A stretch of 64,000 nucleotides of DNA from Microcaldota archaeon (GTDB lineage: Archaea > Micrarchaeota > Micrarchaeia > Micrarchaeales > Micrarchaeaceae): positions 21,713-85,712 of the forward strand of contig DAHVQB010000009.1 in NCBI GenBank assembly GCA_027317945.1, in the 5' to 3' direction. This document shows positions 1 through 19,411 of this stretch, in pieces. The notes under the pieces are model-generated. The model did no database searches, was not told the origin of the DNA, and was given only the letters and a program-made list of their open reading frames with translations. The position numbers were made by a program, and so were the translations under genes. Every line of letters begins with the position of its first letter. Within the stretch, counting starts at the first letter, position 1.

Positions 1-396
1 ATGATAATATCATGGATATTCACTCCATGCCCCAACGCTACTAACTGGTGCAACCCGTCATTCTTGTACCTTGGTACGGCGTACGCGATACCCAACATAC
101 CCGCATCCACGTTCTTCACCACAACCACTGCGCAGCAGGGCACGGTAAGCCTGTCCGGCATATCGATAACATCTTTGAGCATGGGTGAATACGCCCAGAT
201 ACTGTCTGCAGCGATAGACCCGGCTACAGTAATAAGCAACGTGCTCGGCATGGCGGACCAAGTCGCGCAGTTCCTATTTACATCAGTGATGCTTTTTGCA
301 TTGGACATGACAGTAACAATGGGGTTCGGAGTCGGCCTGGCGAAGGCGCTTACAAGCGGCCTGGATGGGGCGTCGGCATTCTGGAGCAACGTATAG
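1..396 (+). CDS. Polytopic membrane protein, C-terminal part (probable first member of tandem VirB6/CedA-like paralogs; truncated by window edge)
   Basis: ORF open at window edge; hydrophobic C-terminal segment and ending (GLAKALTSGLDGASAFWSNV) similar in layout to the following four membrane proteins. Confidence 0.6.
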   Translation: MIISWIFTPCPNATNWCNPSFLYLGTAYAIPNIPASTFFTTTTAQQGTVSLSGISITSLSMGEYAQILSAAIDPATVISNVLGMADQVAQFLFTSVMLFALDMTVTMGFGVGLAKALTSGLDGASAFWSNV

Positions 397-403
397 TGGG
401 TTC

Positions 404-1975
404 ATGTTAGTACTACCGAATTTAATATTGCAAAGCGCCATCGGCTCATGCGCGCAAGAGGCTGCCGCATCAGTGCCCACGAGCGCCTGCGCGGCGCAGA
501 CAAGCCTGGCCGCATTCATAATAATAGCAATACTGCTTGACGCGCTAATAGTCGCAGTCTGGTACATGCTTGGCTACATATTGAACGATCAGAGGATAAA
601 GGCCAACGCACGCGGCGAGTTCGTCCAGTTGATCGGCACAACGATATTGGTCGCTATAATAGTCGGGATCCTGGCATTTTTCGCATCTTTGTACATGTCA
701 TCTTACGGATCAGGGGTAATGAGCCCCAAGGCCATGTATTATACCTGCAATAACATAGCGTCAGGATCGAAGCTCACACTCTTCTCCGGCAATATGATCT
801 CCACAACTGCGGGCTCTCCTCCGCTTCCCTTAAACTCGCAATCCAACCTGCTTGAGGGTTCGCCTTCGTTCCCGGGCATATGTGCCATGGTAGCTAAACC
901 GGCCTCATTCACGCAGCAGATAGACTATCCATTGGCGGCTTCGGACGTGCTTATAGCGAACTTGACAAACCAGACGCTTGTAAATCTAAACGCGCTCTTC
1001 ACAATAGACACGTACCTTGGCTTCCTTGACAGCTTCACCCCTTTCGTCGAGCCGGCATGCTGGTCTAACCTGGAAGCCTGCCTCCTGCCCGGTTTGGGCA
1101 CCATAAACTTTGACATGAAGATATCATTCCAACCATTCGCTGGCTACGATCTCATATTCAATTCATACGGCCCTCTCGGAGACCTCCTTGCTCTCGCTTT
1201 CGAGTCATATGTCGCCCAGTTCGTTTTCCTGGTCGTGATGCTGTTTGTATGGCCTTACATGCTATTCATCGGTGTGGTACTCAGAGCCACTCCATTCACA
1301 AGGAAGATAGGGGGCCTATTCATAGCGATAGCAATAGGTGCCGTCATATTCCTTCCGGTGATGTACGCTATAGAGTACACGAACCTCTGCGCAGGGGTGC
1401 CGTACTATGTGCAAGGCGCCTCGGGCCAGCCGCTGTTCACCACCCCAGTTGGATGCACTCAGGTTAATCCGTCATCGTCTGCTGCACGCCAGCAAAGCAC
1501 CGCTGCATTCGCTTTCAACTCGTTCGCATACGGTTACAACGGCATAACTACGCTTCCTGCGAATTCGCCAACAACGGGCAACTACTATGATATAAACTTC
1601 TTCGTCATGCCCAACATGACATACATCGGTACGCATACGTACGACAGCAACAATGCCGCCTGTTGGCCCAGCGGCGGCATAGCCGCGTCAGAGCTTTCCG
1701 CGATGGGCTATTCGTTGTTACCGACGGCATTCGCATCCGCATTGCTTGGGGCATCCCCATCCGCGGTGTTGTCTTCATTCAACATAAACATATTCTGTTC
1801 GCAGCAGTCAGCGTTAAGTCTGCTCTACAACCTATTCCAGTCATACGGGGTAGTGGGCGTAAGCGCATACTTCATGCCACTCATAAACATGCTCGTTGTC
1901 ATATCGGCAGTCATAGGTCTTTCCGGCCTGCTTGGCGGTGACACTGAGCTGGCTGGGCTTGCAAAGTTAGTGTAA
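404..1975 (+). CDS. Polytopic membrane protein, VirB6/TrbL/CedA-like paralog
   Basis: Multiple TM segments; motif GVVLRATPFTRKIGGLFIAIAIGAVIFLPVMY shared with next three ORFs. Start at 404 (MLVLPN) preferred over 365, which overlaps the previous gene. Confidence 0.65.
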   Translation: MLVLPNLILQSAIGSCAQEAAASVPTSACAAQTSLAAFIIIAILLDALIVAVWYMLGYILNDQRIKANARGEFVQLIGTTILVAIIVGILAFFASLYMSSYGSGVMSPKAMYYTCNNIASGSKLTLFSGNMISTTAGSPPLPLNSQSNLLEGSPSFPGICAMVAKPASFTQQIDYPLAASDVLIANLTNQTLVNLNALFTIDTYLGFLDSFTPFVEPACWSNLEACLLPGLGTINFDMKISFQPFAGYDLIFNSYGPLGDLLALAFESYVAQFVFLVVMLFVWPYMLFIGVVLRATPFTRKIGGLFIAIAIGAVIFLPVMYAIEYTNLCAGVPYYVQGASGQPLFTTPVGCTQVNPSSSAARQQSTAAFAFNSFAYGYNGITTLPANSPTTGNYYDINFFVMPNMTYIGTHTYDSNNAACWPSGGIAASELSAMGYSLLPTAFASALLGASPSAVLSSFNINIFCSQQSALSLLYNLFQSYGVVGVSAYFMPLINMLVVISAVIGLSGLLGGDTELAGLAKLV

Positions 1976-1983
1976 GTGGAACG

Positions 1984-3228
1984 ATGTCAAATAAAAGAGC
2001 GTTAATGTTATGCGTCGTCATCGCATTGTTTGTCGGTGCGCTTCAGATGCAATTAGCATCCGCCGCTGCGTCTCCAACTACTCCGACTACCCTATCTGAA
2101 GAATGCGTAGGCATAATCCCGCCACCCGGCACGCAGAGCCCAACAATAGTGAACATTGCAAGCTTCAGTTCGCTGATAGGCATATCAATGCTGATAATAC
2201 TTTTGATGACGGTCATAATAGCCATAGCCTATTCGCTGGGCCACGCGTTCGGCATAGACAAGCTCACAACTTTTGCAAAGACGGAGGCAGGCGAAATAGC
2301 AATAACCATAATCATTGTTGGCATATTCCTTGGCACATTCACGGCAACCAGTGCAATTGCGAATTCAAATCTGTTTGCGGCTGCAGGAAATTCGTTCAAC
2401 AGCAACATCTTCCTTGACGATTGCAATGCGGTGATGAGCTCGTCTGCGGCCCTGATATCCCCGGAACTGGCATTTGTGCTTGATACCGGATTCATAAGCA
2501 TGGCTTCTGGCGCATCAGTCAACCTTCAGTTCTCATCATTCGGGATATCCTTCCAGCCTTATGCCGGGGACCAGTTTCTTAGCTCCATAATGCAGACACT
2601 GGAGAACATCGGCGGCATCATGACCGGCCTGCTGTTCGGCATGGGCATATTCCTCGCAGTGATATACGGCCTATTCCCATTGTTCCTTTTCGCCGGCATA
2701 GTGCTAAGGACCCTGCCGATTACTAGACCTGCCGGCGGCGCGATGCTGGGCCTATTTGCAGCATTTTACATACTTCTGCCCATAATGCTCCACTTCTTCC
2801 TATTCTATAACAGCAACTACATAACAGACAGCACGATAACTGCACAGGGATTATGCCCAGTAAATGGGTTATCGACATCTACTACGCCTCCTCCGCCCAC
2901 CTCAACCTCGTCTACATCGCCGGTTCCGTGCAACACTGCGGGATTCTTCAGCGGCATAATTCCCCAGATTACAAAATTATCCACTGGCGCGCTTAGCGCA
3001 GCTATAGGCTTAGGTTCTACAGGAGCGAGTTCGCTGTCGATAATAGGCGCGCTGCTGAATGGCAACATAGTGCAGCTTTTCGTGCAGGACATAATAGAGC
3101 CAGTGTTCTATACGATGGTGGCTTTCATACTATCGCTTGTTATGGCGTATGACTTCATGGAAGCTGTCGGCGACCTGCTCGGCGCGCCAAGCCTGAATGC
3201 GAGCACCATGCTGAAAAATGTGATATGA
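1984..3228 (+). CDS. Polytopic membrane protein with signal peptide, VirB6/CedA-like paralog
   Basis: N-terminal signal/TM, several TM segments, motif GIVLRTLPITRPAGGAMLGLFAAFYILLPIM. Confidence 0.65.
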   Translation: MSNKRALMLCVVIALFVGALQMQLASAAASPTTPTTLSEECVGIIPPPGTQSPTIVNIASFSSLIGISMLIILLMTVIIAIAYSLGHAFGIDKLTTFAKTEAGEIAITIIIVGIFLGTFTATSAIANSNLFAAAGNSFNSNIFLDDCNAVMSSSAALISPELAFVLDTGFISMASGASVNLQFSSFGISFQPYAGDQFLSSIMQTLENIGGIMTGLLFGMGIFLAVIYGLFPLFLFAGIVLRTLPITRPAGGAMLGLFAAFYILLPIMLHFFLFYNSNYITDSTITAQGLCPVNGLSTSTTPPPPTSTSSTSPVPCNTAGFFSGIIPQITKLSTGALSAAIGLGSTGASSLSIIGALLNGNIVQLFVQDIIEPVFYTMVAFILSLVMAYDFMEAVGDLLGAPSLNASTMLKNVI

Positions 3229-4394
3229 ATATGTCAAATGCAAAATTTGCAATAGCCTTGATGTGCGCCTTTATGTTGGCAGCGTGCGCAGTGGGCGATG
3301 CATCCGCAGGCGATCTGCATTACGCGTCCGCGCCCCAATACCTGATGAACGGCCCCACGTTGATGGCAGCTTCATCCCTGCCACTTGCATTGACGAGTTG
3401 GGAGGGCATAGCAGTAATAGCGGTGCTCCTGATAATAGCTATAGCTGCAATAGTCTACATGCTGGCAGGCGCAACAGGAAGCGCCACGGCAAGGACATGG
3501 TCGAAGATGCAGATATACGAAGCATTCGTTTCGATATTGCTAATCGGCATATTCGGGGCACTGTCATACATGTTCTTCCTGAACCCACAGGGCGCCTTCG
3601 CCGGCGCCGGGCTATTGCCCGGCAACGTCATAACGCATACCGGATGCTATGCCAGCAACGTAAATAACATATACAACTTATCCGCTTGCGACATGGGGGC
3701 GTTCATGGTGAACGCTACAAACTATTTCGCCACAATATACTACGTAGGTTTCATAGCTGCCGCCACTGTGCCTGGCGTAATAATAAACGCAACTCCCTTC
3801 ACCGTGATAGGCCAAGGGACAGTGTCATTCCAGCTGGGCACCCCAAGCTTCCTTCCGTCATCGCTTGAGTCCATGTTCGAGACGGGCGCCTCGGGCCTGC
3901 TTTTCCTAATACTGCTTAACCAGATACAAATGATACTGATATCTGGCTCCCTCCTATTCCTGTCGCTGTTCATGGTGCTTGGTCTGGTGGCAAGATGCTT
4001 CGGATTCACGCGGACATTCGGCGGTTCGCTGATCGCGTTGGGCCTCGGCCTCGGCCTGGTATATCCAATGTTGATCAGCATGACCTACGGTTTCATAGAT
4101 GTCCAACTCCAGTCGGCCAGCTGGGTCACTCTAGCAGGCGCCATATTCAGCACTCTGTATACGATGGTGCTGGGCACAGGGGTATCATGCACGGTCAATG
4201 TGGCCCAGGCAGCTGTCCAGTCATCAACGTGCGGATATCTTGATACTGCGGTGCTCACCACGGGATATCTTATAGTGGGATTGCTGATAATACCTCTGCT
4301 TAACTTCGCCATACTGGATGCATTCATCGTTGACTTCTCAAGGGCCATGGGAGAGCGCGTAGACTTCATGTCGATGATAGGTAGTGTGATATGA
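3225..4394 (+). CDS. Polytopic membrane protein, VirB6/CedA-like paralog
   Basis: Overlaps upstream stop (ATGA-type junction); motif GLVARCFGFTRTFGGSLIALGLGLGLVYPML. Confidence 0.65.
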   Translation: MNMSNAKFAIALMCAFMLAACAVGDASAGDLHYASAPQYLMNGPTLMAASSLPLALTSWEGIAVIAVLLIIAIAAIVYMLAGATGSATARTWSKMQIYEAFVSILLIGIFGALSYMFFLNPQGAFAGAGLLPGNVITHTGCYASNVNNIYNLSACDMGAFMVNATNYFATIYYVGFIAAATVPGVIINATPFTVIGQGTVSFQLGTPSFLPSSLESMFETGASGLLFLILLNQIQMILISGSLLFLSLFMVLGLVARCFGFTRTFGGSLIALGLGLGLVYPMLISMTYGFIDVQLQSASWVTLAGAIFSTLYTMVLGTGVSCTVNVAQAAVQSSTCGYLDTAVLTTGYLIVGLLIIPLLNFAILDAFIVDFSRAMGERVDFMSMIGSVI

Positions 4395-5503
4395 CATACG
4401 GCAAACTTTTACCTAAAGCCGCGGTGCTCCTTGCCGCGTTGCTCATAGTCGCAGCTCTGCCTCTTCCGGTCAATGCCGCCACATCAGGCAGCTGCAGTTC
4501 ATATCCATCCAGCCTGGCAGGCCAACTAAGTGCAGAGCCATGGTACTGCCCGATAAACCAGCAGATATCATCGGAATGGGCCGCAGACCTGCCATTCGTG
4601 TTCATCGCGGTCCTGTTGTCGTTCGCTGTCGCAACGCTGATAATAATGATAGGGGTGGCAGCGAAGAGCGACGCCGTTAGGAACTTCGGGATAGGCGAGC
4701 TTTACGAGGCCGTGGCAAGCGCCATAATAGTGCTCTTGTTCATCTACATATGCGCAACGCTGTTTGGCCTGCTTCCAGGGGAGATAGTGGGCCCGATAAA
4801 TCCGTACGGCACTTCCCTCGGATTGATAAGCAATACGATAAACTCAGCGGAGACAATGTACACCAGCCTGTACAACGCCTATAGCGGCGCGGCTTACGCT
4901 GCTTCCGTGAATTTCTACATCGAGTTCCCAGAATCCACATTCTTCTCCTCATTCGCCACATTCGTGAACGCGGTAAAAGAAGAAGGTCTTCAGATAACCG
5001 TCATGGAACCGGTGCAAGTCATAGCAGGGGTCATCAGCAATGCCATCCTGGTGCTATGGTCCGAGTATTATCTCATAGTATTCTTTTCCGTTGCGGCCAT
5101 ACCAGTGTTCCTTATACCGGGGGTCCTGTTCAGGACGTTCCTGCCGACGCGGCCTTTCGGCGGCATGCTCATAGCGCTTGGCATAGGGTTCTACCTTGTA
5201 ATGCCGACGCTCTTCGCCGTAGCGTTCTACTTCACCACGCCAGGGGTGGTGAGTACGCTAAATTCCGTCAGCTCAAACCTGAACGTGCTGGGTGCGGGCA
5301 GCGGCGTGATCAACAACGGTCAGCCCGGCGGCCCGATACAATACCAATTGCAGCAGGTCGAGCCGGAGATGAGCTCATTCTGGCTGATGATACTGTTCTT
5401 CCCTGGCCTGATAATAGCGCTCACATACTCTTTCGTAACGCAGTTGGCGAACTTCATAGGCGGCGTGTCATACACCGGAAGCAGGCTGAGGTCGTTCATA
5501 TGA
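4391..5503 (+). CDS. Polytopic membrane protein, VirB6/CedA-like paralog
   Basis: Overlaps upstream stop; motif GVLFRTFLPTRPFGGMLIALGIGFYLVMPTL. Confidence 0.65.
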   Translation: MTYGKLLPKAAVLLAALLIVAALPLPVNAATSGSCSSYPSSLAGQLSAEPWYCPINQQISSEWAADLPFVFIAVLLSFAVATLIIMIGVAAKSDAVRNFGIGELYEAVASAIIVLLFIYICATLFGLLPGEIVGPINPYGTSLGLISNTINSAETMYTSLYNAYSGAAYAASVNFYIEFPESTFFSSFATFVNAVKEEGLQITVMEPVQVIAGVISNAILVLWSEYYLIVFFSVAAIPVFLIPGVLFRTFLPTRPFGGMLIALGIGFYLVMPTLFAVAFYFTTPGVVSTLNSVSSNLNVLGAGSGVINNGQPGGPIQYQLQQVEPEMSSFWLMILFFPGLIIALTYSFVTQLANFIGGVSYTGSRLRSFI

Positions 5504-5602
5504 TGGCAAGTATGTCATGCGGAAGGCTTGGCGGATGGCACAGCAAAGTTAATAAAGATTAAGTGATAAGGTAGATGCGCGATAATCTAGGGTTGGGGTC
5601 CG

Positions 5603-6433
5603 ATGCAGATCAAAATATTTGTGCTCATGGCCTTCCTTGGCATGTCCATATTCTTCATAGCCCTTGCGGCAGCCCTCCCGCCCGGCATAATGTTCGACAT
5701 CCTTAAGATATTATTGCTCGCCATAGGCCTCATGTTCGATGTCATAGCTTTCGCATCAAGATTCTACACATACCTATTGATACCTGCCGTGAAGCAGAGG
5801 AGCAGGAATATAGTCCTAAGCGATGAGGAGCCTTACAACATATCCCCGTCCGCAGATTCCATAATGCACAAGGAGGGCTCAGAGTTCGTAGCTACGGTGT
5901 ACGTTGCCATACCTTTGTACCGCTCGGCCACCGAGATGAGCGACGAGGAGAAGATGGACTTCACCAAGCAGGTGAGCAGGCTGGTGGGGGTCTCGAAGGA
6001 CACCGTGCGCTTCACCTCTGAACTTTACGTGATGAACAAGGATGCGTACATACAGACGCTTAAGGATACGATAAATTCATTGGAGAACGAGGCCGTCGAG
6101 CTGACTAACAAGAAGGACAAGGCGAAGGAGCTGGACCGCACGAAAGGAAAGCTGGCGATGTGGCACAACATGCTTGATAACATAGAGAAAGCGCAGTCGC
6201 TTGAGCTGATAACGTATGCAGCCATATCCGCCAAAGGGACAAAAGAGTTCGAGGCCGTTAGCATAGCACAGCAGAGGGCCAGGGAGATGATGGCAGGCGT
6301 GGGCTCCGTATTCGGGGTGACGCCGAGCGTAGTCATCGGCCAGGAACTTCTCAAGTTCATAGAGCCGGAGTACCTAATACCGTTCTCCACTGTGAGCGAG
6401 CAGCTCAGCAAGAACATACAACAGGTGATGTGA
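5603..6433 (+). CDS. Membrane-anchored coiled-coil protein of the T4SS-like cluster
   Basis: Two N-terminal TM segments, then long soluble region with coiled coil; in operon with VirB4-like ATPase. Confidence 0.55.
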   Translation: MQIKIFVLMAFLGMSIFFIALAAALPPGIMFDILKILLLAIGLMFDVIAFASRFYTYLLIPAVKQRSRNIVLSDEEPYNISPSADSIMHKEGSEFVATVYVAIPLYRSATEMSDEEKMDFTKQVSRLVGVSKDTVRFTSELYVMNKDAYIQTLKDTINSLENEAVELTNKKDKAKELDRTKGKLAMWHNMLDNIEKAQSLELITYAAISAKGTKEFEAVSIAQQRAREMMAGVGSVFGVTPSVVIGQELLKFIEPEYLIPFSTVSEQLSKNIQQVM

Positions 6434-7263
6434 TGGATGAAGAGGCAATAATGTACCTTATATTGACATTCCTCATAGCGCTAATAGTATTCCTCGTGCT
6501 GCCATCGTTCGGCGGCGGGATATTCAGCATAATAGCAATAATACTGACGCTCATCGCCATTGTCTTAATAGTGATGTTGAACTGGGCCGACTTCATAATA
6601 TTCCCATTGGTGACCAACGCACTAGGCATCACGTTCCAGCCGGCAAGGAACTACAAGATAGTCAAGAGCCAGGACGCCATAGTGAAGAACGTGAACGGCC
6701 TCTATTATGCCACAGGATACGTGACCGGAAACCTGTTCCCCTATGTGTTCAAGCTGGAATCCAGGCAGGAAGAGGAGGACAGGAAGATGCTCGCTGCACC
6801 GGACATATGGGAACGCGCGATAATGAATATAGGTTTCCCTTTCAAGTTCCATGTGCTTTCATCAGGCCTTGACATACAGAACGTCAGGGACGAGCTTGAG
6901 GGCAGGCGGTCCTATCAGGAGTTCCAGCTGTCAAGGGCGCAGCAAGGCAACGCCAATGAGATGGCAGTCACGGAGCTTAGGAGGAAGATAAGCGTGCTGC
7001 AGACGAAGATAGACAGGATATCGCAAGGAGAGAAGCCCATCGCCACGGTGATGTACTTCGAAACGACGGCCGTGGACGTATCCGAGAAGGCAGCAGCGGA
7101 CAGGCTCAATGCCCAGATAAAGAGCCTCCAGGTGGCCTTCAGCGGCATGGACCTGCAGTTGTCCAAGGTCGTAGGCAGGGAGCTGTACACGCTGTTCTCA
7201 TTCAACTTCTCGATGCCGACAAGCCTCGAGGAGCTTTCAGCATTTTTCGATAGGCAATCATGA
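6430..7263 (+). CDS. Membrane-anchored coiled-coil protein of the T4SS-like cluster (possible VirB4 N-terminal-domain-like)
   Basis: Two N-terminal TM segments; soluble domain (NGLYYATGYVTGNLFPYVFKLESRQEEED); overlaps upstream gene. Confidence 0.55.
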   Translation: MMDEEAIMYLILTFLIALIVFLVLPSFGGGIFSIIAIILTLIAIVLIVMLNWADFIIFPLVTNALGITFQPARNYKIVKSQDAIVKNVNGLYYATGYVTGNLFPYVFKLESRQEEEDRKMLAAPDIWERAIMNIGFPFKFHVLSSGLDIQNVRDELEGRRSYQEFQLSRAQQGNANEMAVTELRRKISVLQTKIDRISQGEKPIATVMYFETTAVDVSEKAAADRLNAQIKSLQVAFSGMDLQLSKVVGRELYTLFSFNFSMPTSLEELSAFFDRQS

Positions 7264-7283
7264 TGTTTTACACGGTGGTATAA

Positions 7284-8795
7284 GTGACATTACTTAAGTT
7301 GCAGAGCATAATGAGCAATGAGGTGGCCAAGCGGGCTTTCTTCTCCAGGCCGCCGGAGCCTCCGGTAAGCGCGCTAATGACGGACCCTTTCAAGTCGCTG
7401 TATGTCGGCACCACAAAGATATTCAAGGTTCCGTTCACGTGGTCTTTCCTAAATCTGACCAACCCTCACATAGCAGTTGTCGGTATAACGGGTTCAGGTA
7501 AGTCATATTTCGTCAAGACGCTCCTGATAAGGGCCAGTTACGTATGGGACAGCAATGCCGTCATAATAGACTGGGCCGGGGAGTACAAGGCATGGGTGAA
7601 GCAGAGCGGCGGGATAGTGGTATCATTAGCCAAGGGTGACTACATAAACATAATGGACCTGTCGGGCATGAAGCCGCTGGATAGGACCAAGCAGATAATG
7701 AATTCGCTAGACATACTTACCGACATATCACAGTTCCCAGAGCAGAAGAGGCTGACAGAGGAAGCCATAGAGCAGTCGTACGCCAACTTAGGTTTCATAG
7801 TATCGGAGAAACCGCAGGAAGACAAGGAGGCGCCTACACTGAAAGACACGATATCGCTGTTGGAGGAGAAGCTGCAGGAAGGCACCTACGAGTACCCTGC
7901 GGAGCTGGAGAATACGATATACAGGCTCAGGCAGTTCGCGAGGGAGGGAGAGGACTATTTCGCAAGGAAGAGCACCATAGATCTTGGCAAGCTGACCGGA
8001 TCTGGCTTGGTCGACATAGACCTGTCCGGCTTGCCTGATGAGAAGTTCAGGGCCCTGGCCGGTCTTTTCATACTTCAGACTATGAAGGAACGCATGAGGA
8101 GCGAGGGATGGAGCGAGAACAAGGGTCTGAAGACCATCGTGGTGCTGGACGAGGCCTGGAAGATAGCTAGCGACGAGAAGAGCGACGCGATAATGATAGT
8201 TAGGGAGGGCAGGAAGTACCAGTTCGGGTTGATAGTTGCATCACAGAACCCGACCGACATAAACGAGGCCATATTCTCCAACGTCGGCACGACGTTCATA
8301 CTTAGGATAAAATTCGAGAAGTTCCTGAACTACCTGCAAGGCTCGCTGAATTTTTCCGGCTTCATACGCAACGAGATAGGGAAGTTCGGCGTCGGCCAGG
8401 CAGCCGTGGAGATGGCATTCCAGACAGCGATAAGGTTCCCAGAGACGTTCATACTCGAGAAAATACACGGCGAGGAACCGCTTTACGTATACACGATAGA
8501 CATGTCCGACGTGCTAACGCAGGCCGAGGTGGCCGCCGGCGTGATGACGCGCGACTACCAGTTCGAGAAGGAGGAGCTTAAGGACAGGCTGGTGGACTAC
8601 AACATCACAAGCGAAGGCATAAACAGTATATTGTCTGCGTTCGACAGCAGCGGCAGGAGCATGAAGATGCTTGACATGCTGCGCATGGCTAAGGACATAG
8701 GCGGAGTGTCAAACGAGAACATGGTGTCCTTCCTGAAGTCGCTGAGCATAGAAGACCTGCTCATAACAAGGATAATAAGCATGATCGGTGTGTGA
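7284..8795 (+). CDS. VirB4/TraC/CedB-family secretion ATPase
   Basis: Walker A GITGSGKS, Walker B TIVVLDEAWKIA, downstream VREGRKYQFGLIVASQNPTDI typical of VirB4/TraC/HerA superfamily. Confidence 0.85.
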   Translation: MTLLKLQSIMSNEVAKRAFFSRPPEPPVSALMTDPFKSLYVGTTKIFKVPFTWSFLNLTNPHIAVVGITGSGKSYFVKTLLIRASYVWDSNAVIIDWAGEYKAWVKQSGGIVVSLAKGDYINIMDLSGMKPLDRTKQIMNSLDILTDISQFPEQKRLTEEAIEQSYANLGFIVSEKPQEDKEAPTLKDTISLLEEKLQEGTYEYPAELENTIYRLRQFAREGEDYFARKSTIDLGKLTGSGLVDIDLSGLPDEKFRALAGLFILQTMKERMRSEGWSENKGLKTIVVLDEAWKIASDEKSDAIMIVREGRKYQFGLIVASQNPTDINEAIFSNVGTTFILRIKFEKFLNYLQGSLNFSGFIRNEIGKFGVGQAAVEMAFQTAIRFPETFILEKIHGEEPLYVYTIDMSDVLTQAEVAAGVMTRDYQFEKEELKDRLVDYNITSEGINSILSAFDSSGRSMKMLDMLRMAKDIGGVSNENMVSFLKSLSIEDLLITRIISMIGV

Positions 8796-8798
8796 AGG

Positions 8799-9110
8799 AT
8801 GGCCGATAACGCTGAAACGTTCACGATAAGCAGGCCCGAGCTCAGGCGCATGCTAACGGCTTTCGGGGTGACTGAGAAGAACATGGCCGCGCTGTTCAGC
8901 TCCATGGAGAAGGCCCACAGGCACATAAACATAATAGCTTTCGTAAGCATGCTTGAAAAGGCCGGGTTGGACAGGGACGAGGCAAGCAACTTATTCAGGA
9001 GGCTCAACATGGGCGACATAACGATAAAGAGGGCTTTCGACCTGGTAGACGAGGAGCGCATAAACTCCGAAACGGGCAGGCTTTACGATGTGACGGTGGA
9101 CGTAAGTTGA
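8799..9110 (+). CDS. Small soluble alpha-helical protein
   Basis: Abuts the ATPase gene (3 bp gap); intact ORF. Confidence 0.6.
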   Translation: MADNAETFTISRPELRRMLTAFGVTEKNMAALFSSMEKAHRHINIIAFVSMLEKAGLDRDEASNLFRRLNMGDITIKRAFDLVDEERINSETGRLYDVTVDVS

Positions 9111-9533
9111 TTGGCCATGGAAAGTAAAAAGGCAAAAACGAATCGAACGATCGCAGGGTCGCGATGCGTAATCTGCGGTCAGAAGAAGGACGGCCTTGAG
9201 GTCAAGGAAGACATGGTAATAAAATCCATAAGATACTTGAAGCAGAACGTCACCAAGGACGCAAAGAATTACAAGCTAGTGGTCTGCAGGGGATGCTACC
9301 CGAAATACGATAAATCCCGCAGCGCTTATGTCAGGAAGCAGATATCATACGTCACCATAGCGGTGGTATTCACAGTGCTTCTTGTTATAGTGTCAGGTGC
9401 GCAACCGGGCGCATTCGCGTTTGGCATACTACTCATAGCTGCGATGTATGCACTATCACTACTGAGCTATGCCCCGGCAGTCAAGATGCCGTTCATTGCT
9501 AAGAAGAAAATTGACGGCAAGGCCGCCGCATGA
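9111..9533 (+). CDS. Zinc-ribbon protein with C-terminal TM hairpin
   Basis: CVICG...VCRGC cysteine pairs plus two hydrophobic segments; TTG start. Confidence 0.6.
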   Translation: MAMESKKAKTNRTIAGSRCVICGQKKDGLEVKEDMVIKSIRYLKQNVTKDAKNYKLVVCRGCYPKYDKSRSAYVRKQISYVTIAVVFTVLLVIVSGAQPGAFAFGILLIAAMYALSLLSYAPAVKMPFIAKKKIDGKAAA

Positions 9534-9631: not shown

Positions 9632-10375
9632 TTGACCGTGGTTGAGTTGGCTGATGAAAACGTCATTTTAGAACCGAAAGTTGACTCGCTCTCAATAGGC
9701 GGCTCATTGCAAGGTTCATTCGAAGCTATGGCAGACAGGCTATCCCAATTGCAGGTATTCTCTGTGAAAGTCGCCCCGGACTCGCTCTCCGTCTTGAGGG
9801 TGGAAAGCAGGGACATACAGAAAAGGCCGTTCCTTTTTTTCCTGATGACATTCAACAGGGACAAGATAACCATAGAATACTCTATGGGCCAGGACTCCAG
9901 CTCTAAGCTGCGCAAGCTCTATGTGCTTAGGAACCTCCTAAGCGTGCTATCCCTAACGCTTGACATATACCAGCCCAACCCTACTGAGCTTTTTCAGGTC
10001 CTAAGCGCTTCGACAGACGACGCGTTGGGCTCCCTCAATCAGAACTACAGCGTATTGGTTAACAACTACGACTCTCTCTTCAATGAGTACAGGGAGCTGA
10101 AGAGGATGAGCACCCAGTTGATGAGTTCCAACAAAAGCCTTACAGTGCAGGCGTCACAGTTGTCAAACGAGAACGACGAACTGAAGGCAAGGCTGAAGTC
10201 GCTCGAGGCCTACTCGGACGAGTCTCTCATGTCAATGATAGAAGGCTGGATACAGGCGCACGACAACACCATAGACATAGACGAGTTCGCAAAGAACTAC
10301 AAGATAGTCGCACCCAGGGTGGAGCAGATGCTGAACAAGATGGTCTCATTGGGGTACATAGAGTTCAGGGGCTAG
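9632..10375 (+). CDS. Coiled-coil protein with probable C-terminal winged-helix-like region
   Basis: TATA-like ATATATTTATAG upstream; heptad-rich segment; C-term DIDEFAKNYKIVAPRVEQMLNKMVSLGYIEFRG looks wHTH-like. Confidence 0.5.
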   Translation: MTVVELADENVILEPKVDSLSIGGSLQGSFEAMADRLSQLQVFSVKVAPDSLSVLRVESRDIQKRPFLFFLMTFNRDKITIEYSMGQDSSSKLRKLYVLRNLLSVLSLTLDIYQPNPTELFQVLSASTDDALGSLNQNYSVLVNNYDSLFNEYRELKRMSTQLMSSNKSLTVQASQLSNENDELKARLKSLEAYSDESLMSMIEGWIQAHDNTIDIDEFAKNYKIVAPRVEQMLNKMVSLGYIEFRG

Positions 10376-10550: not shown

Positions 10551-12965
10551 GTGCGATGGATGAAGGGCAGCACTAGGAAGAAAATAATAATAGTCATCGT
10601 GTTGCTAGTCGCGCTGATTGGCGGATTCGCATTATACATAAATACTGCATTATCGGCATTCAATTCCGTCAACTCCGCCCCTTCGGGCCCGCTTGCGGTT
10701 CCATCGCTGTCCGCCCATCTGGTGAACCAGAGTTTCCTTTCTGGTGCTTCTGGCTCAAAGCTGATACCATATGCTCTTCTTAACCTGCAGTCATTCAACA
10801 CGTCTACCGTAAACGTGTATGCAAGCATACTGCAGCGCCCAACTCCGCAGAACATATACATATTCAACACGACTAACGAGTGCTATTCGTGCGGCAACGT
10901 GTCACAGGCTACTAGCGCCATAGTGGAGGGCCTATTGAGGTATGGGGCCATAAAATACGCAGGCGCAGTCTCCTTCGTATCCGCTTCCGAGCTGCAGGAC
11001 ATATCCAGCAATTCGGTGCTTATAGTTCTGAATGGCTATATACCGCAGGCTTTCCTGGCCCCTTATAACGGCACGCATAACACAACCATGGAGTACCTTC
11101 TGCGCAAGGGAACCAGCATAATATACGTTGGCGCGGACTTCTCCCACATGCTTCAACAGGGCTCAATAATAGTGCCGTCCGGTACGTTGCCCGACTTTCT
11201 CCAGTCCGTGTTTTTCAACTCAAGCAGCGTTAACGCCAGCACGTACGGCATATTCGGCAATTTCTCTTTCGACAAGCCCACATTCGCCATTTCAGCAAGC
11301 CATTTCTATGGCCCCATAAGTTACATAAACACGATGGGCGGATCTCTAATCGCATTCTCAAACTACGGGAATTCATGGGAGAACTCGACTTATGAGGGAA
11401 GGGACATAGCCAAGGCGATAGCCACGCTGTTCTGGATACCTACATTAGCATCCGGCAGCGGGTCATATAGCATAAGCAACTTCAAGAATTTCAGCGGAAG
11501 GGTAGGCGTAATAATGAACATGAGCGGGCTGCAGTACAACAACGCAACTGCCGCTTTGCTAAGCAGGTACTACGGCCATATAATACTGTATACCAACAGC
11601 AGCTTCAATGCTACCGCACCTGACAGCGCATACGGCTCTGTCGACTATGTTCCGTATTCCAGCTTCAACGGATCGATAGCGACGCCTAGCTACATAATCC
11701 CGGGTCAGCTTACTCCATTCAACATAGAGATATACACGCATTCGTCCACGCCTGTTTCATTGCTGCCGCACCTCCAGATATACGACCAAAATATGTCAGA
11801 AGTAGAAGGCATAGCGCTTCCTTCAATACCAGAGGCACAGGGCAACTTCTCATTCGTGAAATACCTGCAGCTATCGCTGCCTGCAGGGAAATACATAGTG
11901 GCATTAGACAACTTCTCAAACGCGCCTTATGCATATGGCTTTTTCAACGTTAACGTGTCAATCGTGCTTCAAAACACGAACTTCTCATCTGGGCGATTCA
12001 CTTTTCTGGCAACGTCGGCAGGCCAGCCGCTTACAGGGATAAACTACTCAATATCATTATACAATCCACATGCAAAGTATGCATATCCGACTGAGAACGG
12101 CACCCTGCAGAACGGCATGATGGTATACACGCTGCAGAGCGGGCTGGCCACCCCATACTACACGTCAAATTTCACCGTTAACATACTGTCCACAAACTTC
12201 AAGTTTTTCAGATACAACCCGCCTCCCGTAATACCGATAACGACGCAGGACATAGAGATAGTGGTGGTGCTTGCAGTGCTTGGCCTTATGGTCGTCTTTG
12301 TCAGGGCGCCAAACAGGGATGAGTTTTACATAGACGTGCCGCACATGCCGCCAAAGAACAAAACCCAGGTGAAGGTGAAGGCCGCAGAGATAGTGGGTAT
12401 ATTCGACAAGCTCAATCTCTATTACCACTGGAACCATATGCCACTGTCTAAGGGCGAGATAAAGCTGGGCATGTCCAAGTACATGAACTTTATGGGAATG
12501 CCTCTCAACTTGACATTCAATAACATAGACAGGATACTAGATGCGCTGGTGGAGTCGGGCAAATTGGTCACGATAGACGGCCTCTATGCGCCCCAGTCGT
12601 GGGTCGGCGTAGGTCAGCACGACATCTCATACCTAGCTACCTTCAAGAAACTCAGGGTGTTCTTCGTATCTCACGGCTATGTGTTCACTGACATGGGCGC
12701 AAGCAATGTCGCTGACATAGTGGCCACGCAACACGGGGAGCATGCTTACATAGTGATATACTCGAAGACAAGCAGGTTCGCTAACATGCCGATTTTCCAG
12801 AATGCAAAGACATATCTTGCATTCATAAATTCCGAGAGCATGTATGAATTCAAGGATAATCTTTACAACGCAACGACCAATGAGGCCGAAATGCTAAAAT
12901 TATACATAGCGTCTGGCGAGGTGGAGCTCATCGATGCGGACAACCAGCAGCCAATACTGACGTGA
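10551..12965 (+). CDS. Large surface/secreted protein with N-terminal anchor, Asn/Ser/Thr-rich ectodomain, second TM and C-terminal cytosolic domain
   Basis: TM at N-term and IEIVVVLAVLGLMVVFV near residue 570; many NxS/T sequons; GTG start at 10551 or ATG at 10560. Confidence 0.6.
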   Translation: MRWMKGSTRKKIIIVIVLLVALIGGFALYINTALSAFNSVNSAPSGPLAVPSLSAHLVNQSFLSGASGSKLIPYALLNLQSFNTSTVNVYASILQRPTPQNIYIFNTTNECYSCGNVSQATSAIVEGLLRYGAIKYAGAVSFVSASELQDISSNSVLIVLNGYIPQAFLAPYNGTHNTTMEYLLRKGTSIIYVGADFSHMLQQGSIIVPSGTLPDFLQSVFFNSSSVNASTYGIFGNFSFDKPTFAISASHFYGPISYINTMGGSLIAFSNYGNSWENSTYEGRDIAKAIATLFWIPTLASGSGSYSISNFKNFSGRVGVIMNMSGLQYNNATAALLSRYYGHIILYTNSSFNATAPDSAYGSVDYVPYSSFNGSIATPSYIIPGQLTPFNIEIYTHSSTPVSLLPHLQIYDQNMSEVEGIALPSIPEAQGNFSFVKYLQLSLPAGKYIVALDNFSNAPYAYGFFNVNVSIVLQNTNFSSGRFTFLATSAGQPLTGINYSISLYNPHAKYAYPTENGTLQNGMMVYTLQSGLATPYYTSNFTVNILSTNFKFFRYNPPPVIPITTQDIEIVVVLAVLGLMVVFVRAPNRDEFYIDVPHMPPKNKTQVKVKAAEIVGIFDKLNLYYHWNHMPLSKGEIKLGMSKYMNFMGMPLNLTFNNIDRILDALVESGKLVTIDGLYAPQSWVGVGQHDISYLATFKKLRVFFVSHGYVFTDMGASNVADIVATQHGEHAYIVIYSKTSRFANMPIFQNAKTYLAFINSESMYEFKDNLYNATTNEAEMLKLYIASGEVELIDADNQQPILT

Positions 12966-17820: not shown

Positions 17821-18660
17821 TTACATCGCAGGTGGTTTTGGCGCAGCGCTTCCTATCGTAGGCGAAGCGGCAGCGTGTTCAGCGGGCTGCGGTGCAGTAG
17901 CGGATGGCATCGCAGCTACCTTTGGTGTGGGGTTCGGCACGGTCTTCGGCTTTGCCCCGGTGGGGTTGAACGACCATTTTATGGCGTATAAGCCCGCTAT
18001 AACGAGCAATGCAAATGTTACGTAGAACGAATATATCTCGAGCGCTGGGTTGCTTACGGAGCTGAAGTAGGTATAGAAGAAGCCCCACGGGTTGCTTGTG
18101 CTCATCGATACTGTGCCCGGCAGGGTTGACAACTGCACTGCACTTTCGGTAACCGCTATTGTGCCTATCATGTACAGCGCAGTTCCTGCAGCAAGCAGTG
18201 TTGTAACAAGCGTGTCATAGTGGCCATTTTCGTCCGTTTCCTTAACTAGTATGAGTACCAGTGCGAATGCATACAAGTCTATGCCAAGCGGCATGAATGG
18301 TACTGCTACCGGGTATACGAGCGCCGCGGACGGCAGGAACAACACGAATCCCAAGAACAGCACAAGGAACACAGTCAGGTCTCTCAAAAGTATGTATATG
18401 AGCCACCACAGATCTGCAGTAAGGCGAAGTGTGAATTTCTTAAGTATCCTGAGGAAGTAACCCCTTGCCAGCTGCAATGATATGGCCAGTACCATAAGTA
18501 GTAATATGACTACGGTTAGCGTTTCTTCAACGAAAACCGCCAAGCCTGCATCTATTGCTTTTGGTGCTATTATGGCAGCCGTGCTGTTGGTCAAGTTGTA
18601 TATATGCGTAAGATTGGCCTGAGCCGCCTGCAACATCATCGGTAATAGTTCTAGCATCAT
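17821..18660 (-). CDS. Multi-spanning membrane protein of unknown function (paralog A)
   Basis: ~7-8 TM segments; LQLARGYFLRILKKFTLRLTADLWWL shared with next gene; Pro/Ala-rich tail. Confidence 0.7.
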   Translation of the reverse strand: MMLELLPMMLQAAQANLTHIYNLTNSTAAIIAPKAIDAGLAVFVEETLTVVILLLMVLAISLQLARGYFLRILKKFTLRLTADLWWLIYILLRDLTVFLVLFLGFVLFLPSAALVYPVAVPFMPLGIDLYAFALVLILVKETDENGHYDTLVTTLLAAGTALYMIGTIAVTESAVQLSTLPGTVSMSTSNPWGFFYTYFSSVSNPALEIYSFYVTFALLVIAGLYAIKWSFNPTGAKPKTVPNPTPKVAAMPSATAPQPAEHAAASPTIGSAAPKPPAM

Positions 18661-18670
18661 TACACCTTCA

Positions 18671-19411
18671 CTACTTCATTTTGGGCTGCACTGCGCTTGC
18701 TGGGCCGGAACTTTTCTTCTTGCCTAGCAAGCCCATTATAGAGCTCATCGGAGTAAGGCCCCACTGGTCATACGACCATTTGACTGCCCTGCCTCCCGCA
18801 GCTGCCAATATTATGAGCGTTATATAGAATGAATATATGGCTATGGTCGGTGAGTTCAGCGAATCAAAGTATGTATACATGAAGCCCCAGAAGTTGCTTG
18901 GGCTTGTGGATACAGTAGGCACGCTGATGCCCGTTATCTGCGCTGGATTATACGTTACGAATATGGTCCCGAAGAGAATCAACGCAGTGCCTATAGCTAT
19001 GAAAACCGTAAGGAGCGCGTTTGCTTTTGCGTCCTCGTGCGTGTCCTTGAGCAACAGAAGCACTAGGGCGAACGTGAAGAAGTCTATACCCAGCGGCTGG
19101 AATGGCATCGCCACGGCATAATCCTGGAATGTGCCTGGCCAGAATAATGTTATGCCAAGGAATAGCACAAGGAATATGCCGGCGTCTCTTAGCAGGATGG
19201 CTACTAGCCACCATACGTCTGCGGCCAACCTCAATGTGAACTTCCTAAGTATCCTGAGGAAGTAACCCCTTGCCAGCTGCATAGACAGTGCCAATATCGC
19301 CAAAAGCGATATCAGCAGCGTTATTATCTGCTCTACAAGTACCGAGCCAGCAGACACCCAGTTAGTAGCTGGTGTAGACAGCTGGAAAATCAATCCAAAG
19401 TCAGATAACAC
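18671..19411 (-). CDS. Multi-spanning membrane protein of unknown function (paralog B)
   Basis: MQLARGYFLRILRKFTLRLAADVWWL; same layout as 17821-18660. Confidence 0.7.
   Translation of the reverse strand: MLSDFGLIFQLSTPATNWVSAGSVLVEQIITLLISLLAILALSMQLARGYFLRILRKFTLRLAADVWWLVAILLRDAGIFLVLFLGITLFWPGTFQDYAVAMPFQPLGIDFFTFALVLLLLKDTHEDAKANALLTVFIAIGTALILFGTIFVTYNPAQITGISVPTVSTSPSNFWGFMYTYFDSLNSPTIAIYSFYITLIILAAAGGRAVKWSYDQWGLTPMSSIMGLLGKKKSSGPASAVQPKMK

What the first reader, a model, noticed from the sequence alone, without database searches (positions are those of the whole stretch)
1..8795. Simplified type IV secretion / DNA-transfer-like apparatus built on five tandem polytopic paralogs plus a VirB4-like ATPase
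Five consecutive multi-TM proteins, two short-TM coiled-coil proteins and a VirB4/TraC/CedB-type ATPase lie in one tightly spaced co-directional run. Established knowledge: VirB4-type ATPases pair with VirB6-type channels in bacterial T4SS and in crenarchaeal Ced/Ted DNA import. Five different channel-like paralogs with no VirD4, relaxase, VirB8/9/10 or obvious VirB2 pilin in view is an unusual composition, compatible with a hetero-oligomeric channel for DNA uptake or host contact. Function is inference.
Basis: partly seen in the sequence, partly recalled or inferred. Interest (0 to 1): 0.82.

Follow-up and report, generated by a model that had tools for sequence, protein, structure and literature searches.

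The report
Six-part membrane core, archaeal type IV-like translocator
Nearly all sampled Micrarchaeota, tiny host-dependent archaea, carry a stripped-down relative of bacterial type IV secretion machines whose membrane core is encoded by six different sister genes, always six and always in the same order, which suggests a ring built from six non-interchangeable parts that may be how these cells exchange material with others.

Summary
Full order: a VirB2/TrbC-like pilin (A155), a 6-TM protein, SIX (not five) polytopic paralogs M1-M6, two 2-TM proteins (C1, C2), a VirB4-type ATPase, D103, Z140, W247, X804. M6's model gives R388 VirB6 chains as the top three PDB fold hits; C2's model gives VirB4 as the top four; the ATPase matches only VirB4's C-terminal half, so VirB4 is split. 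The ATPase occurs in 252 of 302 Micrarchaeota genomes. In 50 of 51 intact multi-M arrays from 13 family-level groups the number is exactly six (the exception counts a pilin gene); other loci hold exactly one M. A tree of 216 M proteins needs 7 changes of array position (minimum 5; shuffled 139), so the six diverged once and were duplicated as a block. VirD4 and one relaxase family were not detected in ten genomes. Best reading: a chromosomal, Ced/T4SS-derived translocator with an obligate six-subunit heteromeric VirB6-like core. Sequence profiles do not link M to VirB6; ring stoichiometry, substrate and direction are untested. Rickettsiales VirB6 sets (four or five paralogs) are the nearest precedent. 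New variant of a known kind.

The parts
1..396 (+). M2, C-terminal part only; the full gene (423 aa) starts 875 bases before the window. Upstream, outside the window on the same contig: M1 (C17:19522-20829), A286 6-TM protein (C17:18744-19490), A155 VirB2/TrbC-like pilin (C17:18136-18603)
   Evidence: A155: Pfam TrbC 9.7e-8 and T4SS_pilin 1.6e-5 in family members, hhalign to bacterial VirB2 profile 90.5%, E 1.4e-6
365..1975 (+). M3, polytopic VirB6-like paralog (536 aa), third of six
   Evidence: position 3 of the array across lineages
1984..3228 (+). M4, polytopic VirB6-like paralog (414 aa)
3225..4394 (+). M5, polytopic VirB6-like paralog (389 aa); its ortholog in L051 carries extracellular Ig domains
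4391..5503 (+). M6, polytopic VirB6-like paralog (370 aa), best conserved; AlphaFold2 pLDDT 86; top three PDB fold hits are R388 TrwI/VirB6
5603..6433 (+). C1, 2 TM helices plus soluble domain, paralog of C2 (split VirB4 N-terminal domain)
   Evidence: hhalign C1-C2 96.6%, E 5.8e-10
6430..7263 (+). C2, 2 TM helices plus VirB4 N-terminal-domain-like fold; AlphaFold2 pLDDT 81; top four PDB fold hits are R388 TrwK/VirB4
7284..8795 (+). VirB4/HerA-type ATPase lacking the VirB4 N-terminal domain (Walker A GITGSGKS, Walker B VVLDEAW)
   Evidence: Pfam DUF87 3.4e-17, AAA_10 3.9e-16; hhalign to bacterial VirB4 97.3%, E 1.7e-11, residues 59-365 on VirB4 425-726; in 252/302 genomes
8799..9110 (+). D103, small protein paralogous to the ATPase C-terminal domain (residues 429-507 of the profile)
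   Evidence: hhalign 97.0%, E 9.7e-11
9111..9533 (+). Z140, two CxxC-type motifs plus 2 TM, conserved operon member
9632..10375 (+). W247, coiled-coil protein, conserved operon member
10551..12965 (+). X804, 2-TM protein with a long stretch between the TM helices, conserved operon member

Best explanation
This is a chromosomal, type IV secretion-derived envelope translocator of Micrarchaeota, related in composition to the archaeal Ced/Ted DNA-transfer systems. Shown by computation: a VirB2-like pilin gene, a VirB4-type ATPase split into a soluble ATPase and membrane-anchored N-terminal-domain proteins (C1/C2), and six paralogs M1-M6 (VirB6-like fold shown for M6) that diverged once and have been kept as a complete, ordered set ever since. 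Inferred: the six M proteins assemble together, one of each, into a single hetero-oligomeric membrane core, probably a pseudo-six-fold ring matched to the hexameric ATPase. C1/C2 anchor the ATPase to it, and the pilin extends it outward. ATP hydrolysis then drives a macromolecule (DNA, or protein to a partner cell) through the core. Direction and substrate are not determined. The M-C-pilin-ATPase locus with a single M found in the same genomes is probably the unexpanded ancestral form.
For: Six, never two to five: 50 of 51 intact multi-M arrays have six M genes (the '7' includes a pilin gene), all other intact loci have one. Position is orthology: tree of 216 M from 36 arrays needs 7 label changes, minimum 5, shuffled mean 139; A against B arrays 6/6 colinear best hits; concatenated tree gives A, B, N and F15 array types one branch each. 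VirB6 fold: top three of 350,542 PDB chains are TrwI/VirB6, prob 0.93-0.99. VirB4 N-terminal fold in C2: top four hits TrwK/VirB4, prob 0.99-1.00. ATPase = VirB4 C-terminal half, E 1.7e-11. Pilin = VirB2, E 1.4e-6, Pfam TrbC 9.7e-8. Pilin resembles the N-terminus of M2 (E 5.5e-6), as reported for CedA1 and CedA (PMC9905601). ATPase in 252/302 phylum genomes. Ig domains on M5 in L051 suggest surface exposure.
Against: No sequence-profile similarity of M to VirB6/TrbL or of C to VirB4's N-terminal domain; those links rest on fold searches with low TM-scores (0.24-0.40) and E 0.01-0.1. Bacterial VirB6 is a homopentamer and archaeal pili have 5-start helices (PMC12857230, PMC9905601), so six subunits need not be one ring. 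In most families outside the window's order the six-gene arrays are not next to the ATPase, and genomes with two arrays do not obviously have a matching pair of ATPases. No complex was modelled and no expression or biochemical data were examined.
Confidence: 0.6

Rival explanations
1. Five of the M proteins form a VirB6-like hetero-pentamer and the sixth is an accessory (for example a VirB8/VirB5-like or gating subunit), so the core keeps the five-fold symmetry of bacterial VirB6 and of conjugative pili.
For: Bacterial VirB6 and VirB5 are pentamers (PMC12857230); the conjugative pili compared, archaeal ones included, have 5-start helices (PMC9905601); Rickettsia has five VirB6 paralogs (PMC2653234). 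Position 2 is the shortest subunit in A and B arrays.
Against: All six share the same core profile and none stands out as a different fold by sequence.
Confidence: 0.17
2. The six M proteins are alternative or separately acting channels (one per substrate, partner or condition), not one complex.
For: Each is strongly diverged (about 15-22% identity between paralogs) and extra domains are fused to individual members.
Against: Independent channels should be gained and lost singly; no intact array with 2-5 members was seen, and order is fixed in 13 family-level groups and in both duplicate arrays.
Confidence: 0.12
3. It is an integrated conjugative element or a relic of one, spreading horizontally.
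For: VirB2, VirB4 and VirB6-like parts are the conjugation core; M-C-pilin-ATPase minimal loci occur elsewhere in the same genomes.
Against: Near-universal presence, conserved chromosomal context next to a topoisomerase VI-like gene, no VirD4 or relaxase (PF03432) match, no plasmid match to a stand-alone M and no phage match to the ATPase.
Confidence: 0.05
4. A T4SS-like core used to move protein or nucleic acid out into a host cell (symbiosis machine) rather than to import DNA. This is a variant of the best explanation that differs only in direction.
For: Micrarchaeota grow with hosts (PMC8975820, PMC5498576); VirB4/VirB6 were reported essential for epibiotic growth of a patescibacterium (PMC12102498); nanohaloarchaeal VirB4-linked giant surface proteins were proposed to secrete into hosts (PMC10266531); giant lipoprotein-like genes follow the B arrays.
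Against: No effector or substrate was identified, and no VirD4-type coupling protein (PF02534) was detected.
Confidence: 0.35

Closest known systems
Ced (Sulfolobales) and Ted (Thermoproteales) DNA-transfer systems
   Same: Minimal chromosomal T4SS-derived set: VirB2-like pilin, VirB6-like polytopic protein(s), VirB4/HerA ATPase; pilin resembles the N-terminus of the VirB6-like protein. In Sulfolobales, CedB and CedD carry different parts of a VirB4 N-terminal domain and CedE is a second CedA (PMC11868833).
   Different: Six fixed CedA-like paralogs instead of one or two; VirB4 N-terminal domain on a separate membrane protein in two paralogs; different extra subunits (D103, Z140, W247, X804); present across a DPANN phylum.
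Rickettsiales vir homolog (rvh/virB) T4SS with multiplied VirB6
   Same: Set of strongly diverged VirB6 paralogs (five in Rickettsia, virB6a-d with arrayed orthologs in Orientia and most Anaplasmataceae), some with large extra domains, in host-dependent cells (PMC2653234, PMC7648143).
   Different: Number is six; the bacterial system is a double-membrane T4SS with VirB8-11 and VirD4; M proteins share no detectable sequence profile with VirB6.
R388 conjugative T4SS (TrwI/VirB6, TrwK/VirB4)
   Same: Closest solved folds to M6 and C2; ATPase aligns to the VirB4 C-terminal half.
   Different: VirB6 is one gene forming a homopentamer; VirB4 is one chain; core complex, VirB11, VirD4 and relaxase are present.
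Patescibacteria (CPR) T4SS
   Same: Near-universal T4SS in ultrasmall host-dependent cells; VirB6 reported essential for epibiotic growth (PMC12102498).
   Different: Bacterial MPF_FATA-type; the passages read did not mention a six-gene VirB6 set.

Membership tests
Type IV secretion superfamily | VirB4-type ATPase | tested here: met
   Pfam DUF87/AAA_10/TraG P-loop; hhalign to VirB4 residues 425-726, E 1.7e-11; VirB4 N-terminal domain found as separate fold in C2
Type IV secretion superfamily | VirB6/TrbL-type polytopic core protein | tested here: inconclusive
   Fold: top three PDB hits are VirB6. Sequence: no hhalign similarity to a bacterial VirB6 profile; Pfam TrbL gives one sub-threshold match in ten genomes, away from the array
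Type IV secretion superfamily | VirB2/TrbC-type pilin | tested here: met
   A155 family: Pfam TrbC 9.7e-8; hhalign to VirB2 profile 90.5%, E 1.4e-6, next best 0.2%
Type IV secretion superfamily | VirB3 (short, 1-2 TM, bound to VirB4) | tested here: inconclusive
   C1/C2 have two N-terminal TM helices but no profile similarity to VirB3 (1.0%)
Conjugation (mating channel plus DNA processing) | VirD4/T4CP and relaxase | tested here: not met
   PF02534 0/10 genomes, control rang in 5; PF03432 0/10, control rang in 1; other relaxase families not tested
Double-membrane T4SS | VirB8/9/10 core complex | tested here: inconclusive
   PF04335 VirB8 0/10, but the control rang nowhere; no VirB8/B10 profile similarity in the operon proteins compared; VirB9 tested only as a single R388 sequence
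Ced/Ted system | VirB6-like, VirB2-like and VirB4-like proteins in a chromosomal locus | tested here: met
   Composition met, with the VirB6-like part by fold only; the pilin resembles the M2 N-terminus
Ced/Ted system | Sequence homology to CedA/TedA and CedB/TedB | not tested
   No CedA/TedA sequences were reachable in the collections used
Ced/Ted system | Imports chromosomal DNA | not testable with these tools
   Needs an experiment
Rickettsiales multi-VirB6 T4SS | Tandem diverged VirB6 paralogs with PF04610 domain | tested here: not met
   Tandem paralogs yes, PF04610 no

The most novel reading that the evidence does not exclude
Micrarchaeota possess an obligate hetero-hexameric VirB6/CedA-like membrane ring with six non-interchangeable, position-specific subunits, matched one-to-one to a hexameric ATPase whose VirB4 N-terminal domain has been split off. 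The ring arose once from a single-subunit system that persists beside it, and was duplicated whole, so that many species carry two different six-part rings.
Probability: 0.45. Interest if true: 0.88.

Novelty: new variant of a known kind. Interest (0 to 1): 0.78.

Why it matters
How host-dependent DPANN archaea exchange material with other cells is an open question, and this is a near-universal, chromosomal candidate machine with a defined parts list, present in cultivated species (Ca. Micrarchaeum harzensis A_DKE; the ARM-1 genome has the six-gene array). A six-part heteromeric core beside a one-part homologous system in the same cell is a natural experiment in how a homomeric secretion ring becomes heteromeric. 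It also makes the stoichiometry of VirB6-type cores in archaea directly testable: five-fold as in bacteria, or six-fold to match the ATPase.

Tried and rejected
Pfam, NCBIfam and PDB sequence searches with the M families found nothing; PHROGs gave only three hits to Ig-like 'Hoc' domains, probably from fused extracellular domains, not the core. Single-sequence and profile comparison of M and C with R388-type Vir proteins found no VirB6 or VirB4-N similarity, so membership by sequence is not claimed. A first gene-calling pass lost overlapping genes and was replaced. The idea that most families lack M genes, because none lie beside their ATPase, was wrong: they hold two arrays elsewhere. A mobile-element reading was considered and dropped. 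A viral fold search gave only weak hits, one of them a phage TrbL. The pilin family had no PDB sequence match. The first run of the R388 comparison timed out.
Full report
WHAT IS IN THE WINDOW. The finding's genes are real and correctly placed: the end of one polytopic protein (1-396), four complete ones, two 2-TM proteins and a 503-aa P-loop ATPase, all on the + strand. Neighbours overlap or lie within 20 bp, except a 99-bp gap between M6 and C1. The window is bases 21713-85712 of contig 17 of its assembly. Reading upstream (L032) shows that the operon is cut by the window edge. Before the window lie the rest of M2, a sixth paralog M1, a 6-TM protein (A286; one family member gives a weak hit to DUF7847) and a short protein with a signal-like segment and two TM helices (A155). 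Downstream, D103, Z140, W247 and X804 belong to the same conserved run.

CONSERVATION. Among the loci fetched from the window's own order, the gene order A155-A286-M1-M2-M3-M4-M5-M6-C1-C2-ATPase-D103-Z140-W247-X804 recurs. Of 34 further genome loci with at least 9.9 kb upstream of the ATPase, 33 keep the order as far as they reach. In the ARM-1 genome the six M genes sit at 343-350.5 kb, about 76 kb from the ATPase. In one congener (G001) the M genes also lie away from the ATPase. The ATPase is found in 252 of 302 Micrarchaeota genomes, and in 90 of the 97 best ones. Named relatives include the complete genome of Ca. Micrarchaeum sp. A_DKE (L138), which is the organism grown with a Thermoplasmatales host in PMC8975820.

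THE SIX PARALOGS. Within the order, profile comparison links all six M families to one another, E from 1e-22 to 6.5e-8. They share a motif of the type P-x-G-x-x-L-R-x-F-x-x-T-R-x-x-G-G. A pooled M profile searched in 32 genomes gave 6-8 matches in families f1, f2 and f15 and mostly 11-17 in the others. In those others the M genes are not next to the ATPase, but they form separate arrays. Counting genes in all fetched loci with at least 1.2 kb on each side gave 50 arrays of six, one of seven and fourteen loci of one. The 'seven' (L083) and one of the 'ones' (L116) include a short pilin gene that scores with the M2 N-terminus, so no intact array departs from six. The arrays come from 13 family-level groups. 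Because they share ancestry, these are not 50 independent events. The point is that no loss or gain within an array was seen.

POSITION EQUALS ORTHOLOGY. In a tree of 216 M proteins from 36 arrays, position in the array needs 7 changes of label (the least possible is 5; shuffled mean 139). Profile comparison of A-type with B-type arrays gives the matching position as best hit in 6 of 6 cases; against the window-type families it is 5 of 6 and 4 of 6. A tree of concatenated arrays puts A, B, window-type and f15-type arrays each on one branch, A with 93% and the others with 100% support. So the six subunits diverged once, before the sampled families, and the whole block was duplicated. FastTree was used for the large tree and many end branches are long, so single placements are unsure; the label result does not hang on any one of them.

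A ONE-OF-EACH RELATIVE. The same genomes carry a second locus with one pilin-like gene, one M, one C and one shorter ATPase (L223-L227, L230). Other families have similar loci (L098, L099, L102, L109), and in f24 the single-M form is the only one seen. This is most simply the unexpanded form (inference).

WHAT THE PARTS ARE. A155: Pfam TrbC/VirB2 9.7e-8 and T4SS_pilin 1.6e-5 in family members; against profiles built from ten bacterial T4SS, VirB2 is the only match (90.5%, E 1.4e-6; next 0.2%). ATPase: VirB4 97.3%, E 1.7e-11, aligned only to VirB4 425-726, so the N-terminal domain is missing. C2: modelled at pLDDT 81 as two TM helices and a soluble alpha/beta domain; the four best of 350,542 PDB chains are R388 VirB4 (prob 0.99-1.00, about 187 aligned columns). 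C1 is its paralog. M6: modelled at pLDDT 86; the three best PDB chains are R388 VirB6 (prob 0.93-0.99), then a drop to designed proteins at 0.33. TM-scores are low (0.24-0.40), and neither M nor C shows sequence-profile similarity to its bacterial counterpart. These two assignments therefore rest on fold ranking. D103 repeats the ATPase C-terminal domain (E 9.7e-11). The pilin resembles the N-terminus of M2 (E 5.5e-6); the same relation between CedA1 and CedA is reported in PMC9905601. VirD4 (PF02534) and one relaxase family (PF03432) gave no match in ten genomes while their controls rang; the VirB8 test is uninformative because its control did not ring.

MECHANISM. Shown by computation: the parts list, the split VirB4, the fixed six. 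Established: VirB4 ATPases work as hexamers; bacterial VirB6 is a homopentamer (PMC12857230). Inferred: six different M subunits that are never lost singly are parts of one complex, with one of each; a pseudo-six-fold ring would match the ATPase hexamer. A five-plus-one arrangement is not excluded. The Ig domains carried by M5 in L051 suggest that the N-terminal end faces outward. Substrate and direction are unknown. Ced moves DNA, and Ted is inferred to (PMC9905601, PMC11868833); a role in host contact is plausible from the lifestyle and from reports on Patescibacteria and nanohaloarchaea (PMC12102498, PMC10266531).

NOVELTY. No paper found in the library describes this system in Micrarchaeota: searches combining Micrarchaeota with VirB4 or type IV secretion, and DPANN with CedA, VirB6, VirB4 or TrbL, returned none that does so by title and abstract. 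The library lacks most subscription journals. The nearest precedent for multiplied VirB6 is the Rickettsiales. I call it a new variant of a known kind.

Noticed in passing
L203:12673-17595, L208:1667-6382, L210:15332-19234, L213:10750-14850, L215:2224-6519, L217:13430-18094, L236:8152-13161: A 1300-1670 aa protein with a lipobox-like N-terminus, usually followed by a CC pair, lies directly downstream of the B-type six-gene arrays; no Pfam match in the two members scanned.
   Followed up: partly
L051:9471-11999 (M5), L082:5929-8634 (M2): Some M proteins carry long N-terminal extensions behind a signal-like segment; the M5 extension in L051 has immunoglobulin domains (Pfam Ig_3 5.9e-17), recalling the extended VirB6 proteins of bacteria.
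   Followed up: partly
L223-L227, L230: Second, minimal locus in the same genomes: pilin-like, one M, one C, and a 350-450 aa ATPase, followed by further small genes.
   Followed up: partly
window 8799-9110: D103 is a stand-alone copy of the ATPase C-terminal domain; its role is unexplained.
   Followed up: partly
L228, L229 (ARM-1 genome, G214): ARM-1 has the six-gene array separated from the ATPase by about 76 kb, and no recognisable C1/C2 beside the ATPase (a 302-aa 2-TM protein sits there).
   Followed up: partly
G039: This genome gave 25 M matches in several similar arrays, possibly mixed strains in the bin.
   Followed up: no
window 17821-18660 and 18671-19411 (- strand): Two adjacent 5-TM proteins of similar size, not examined.
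   Followed up: no
G274, G276, G281, G286, G287, G292, G294, G295, G298 (families f23-f27): These genomes of the same class show no M gene at all, so the system has a boundary inside the class.
   Followed up: no
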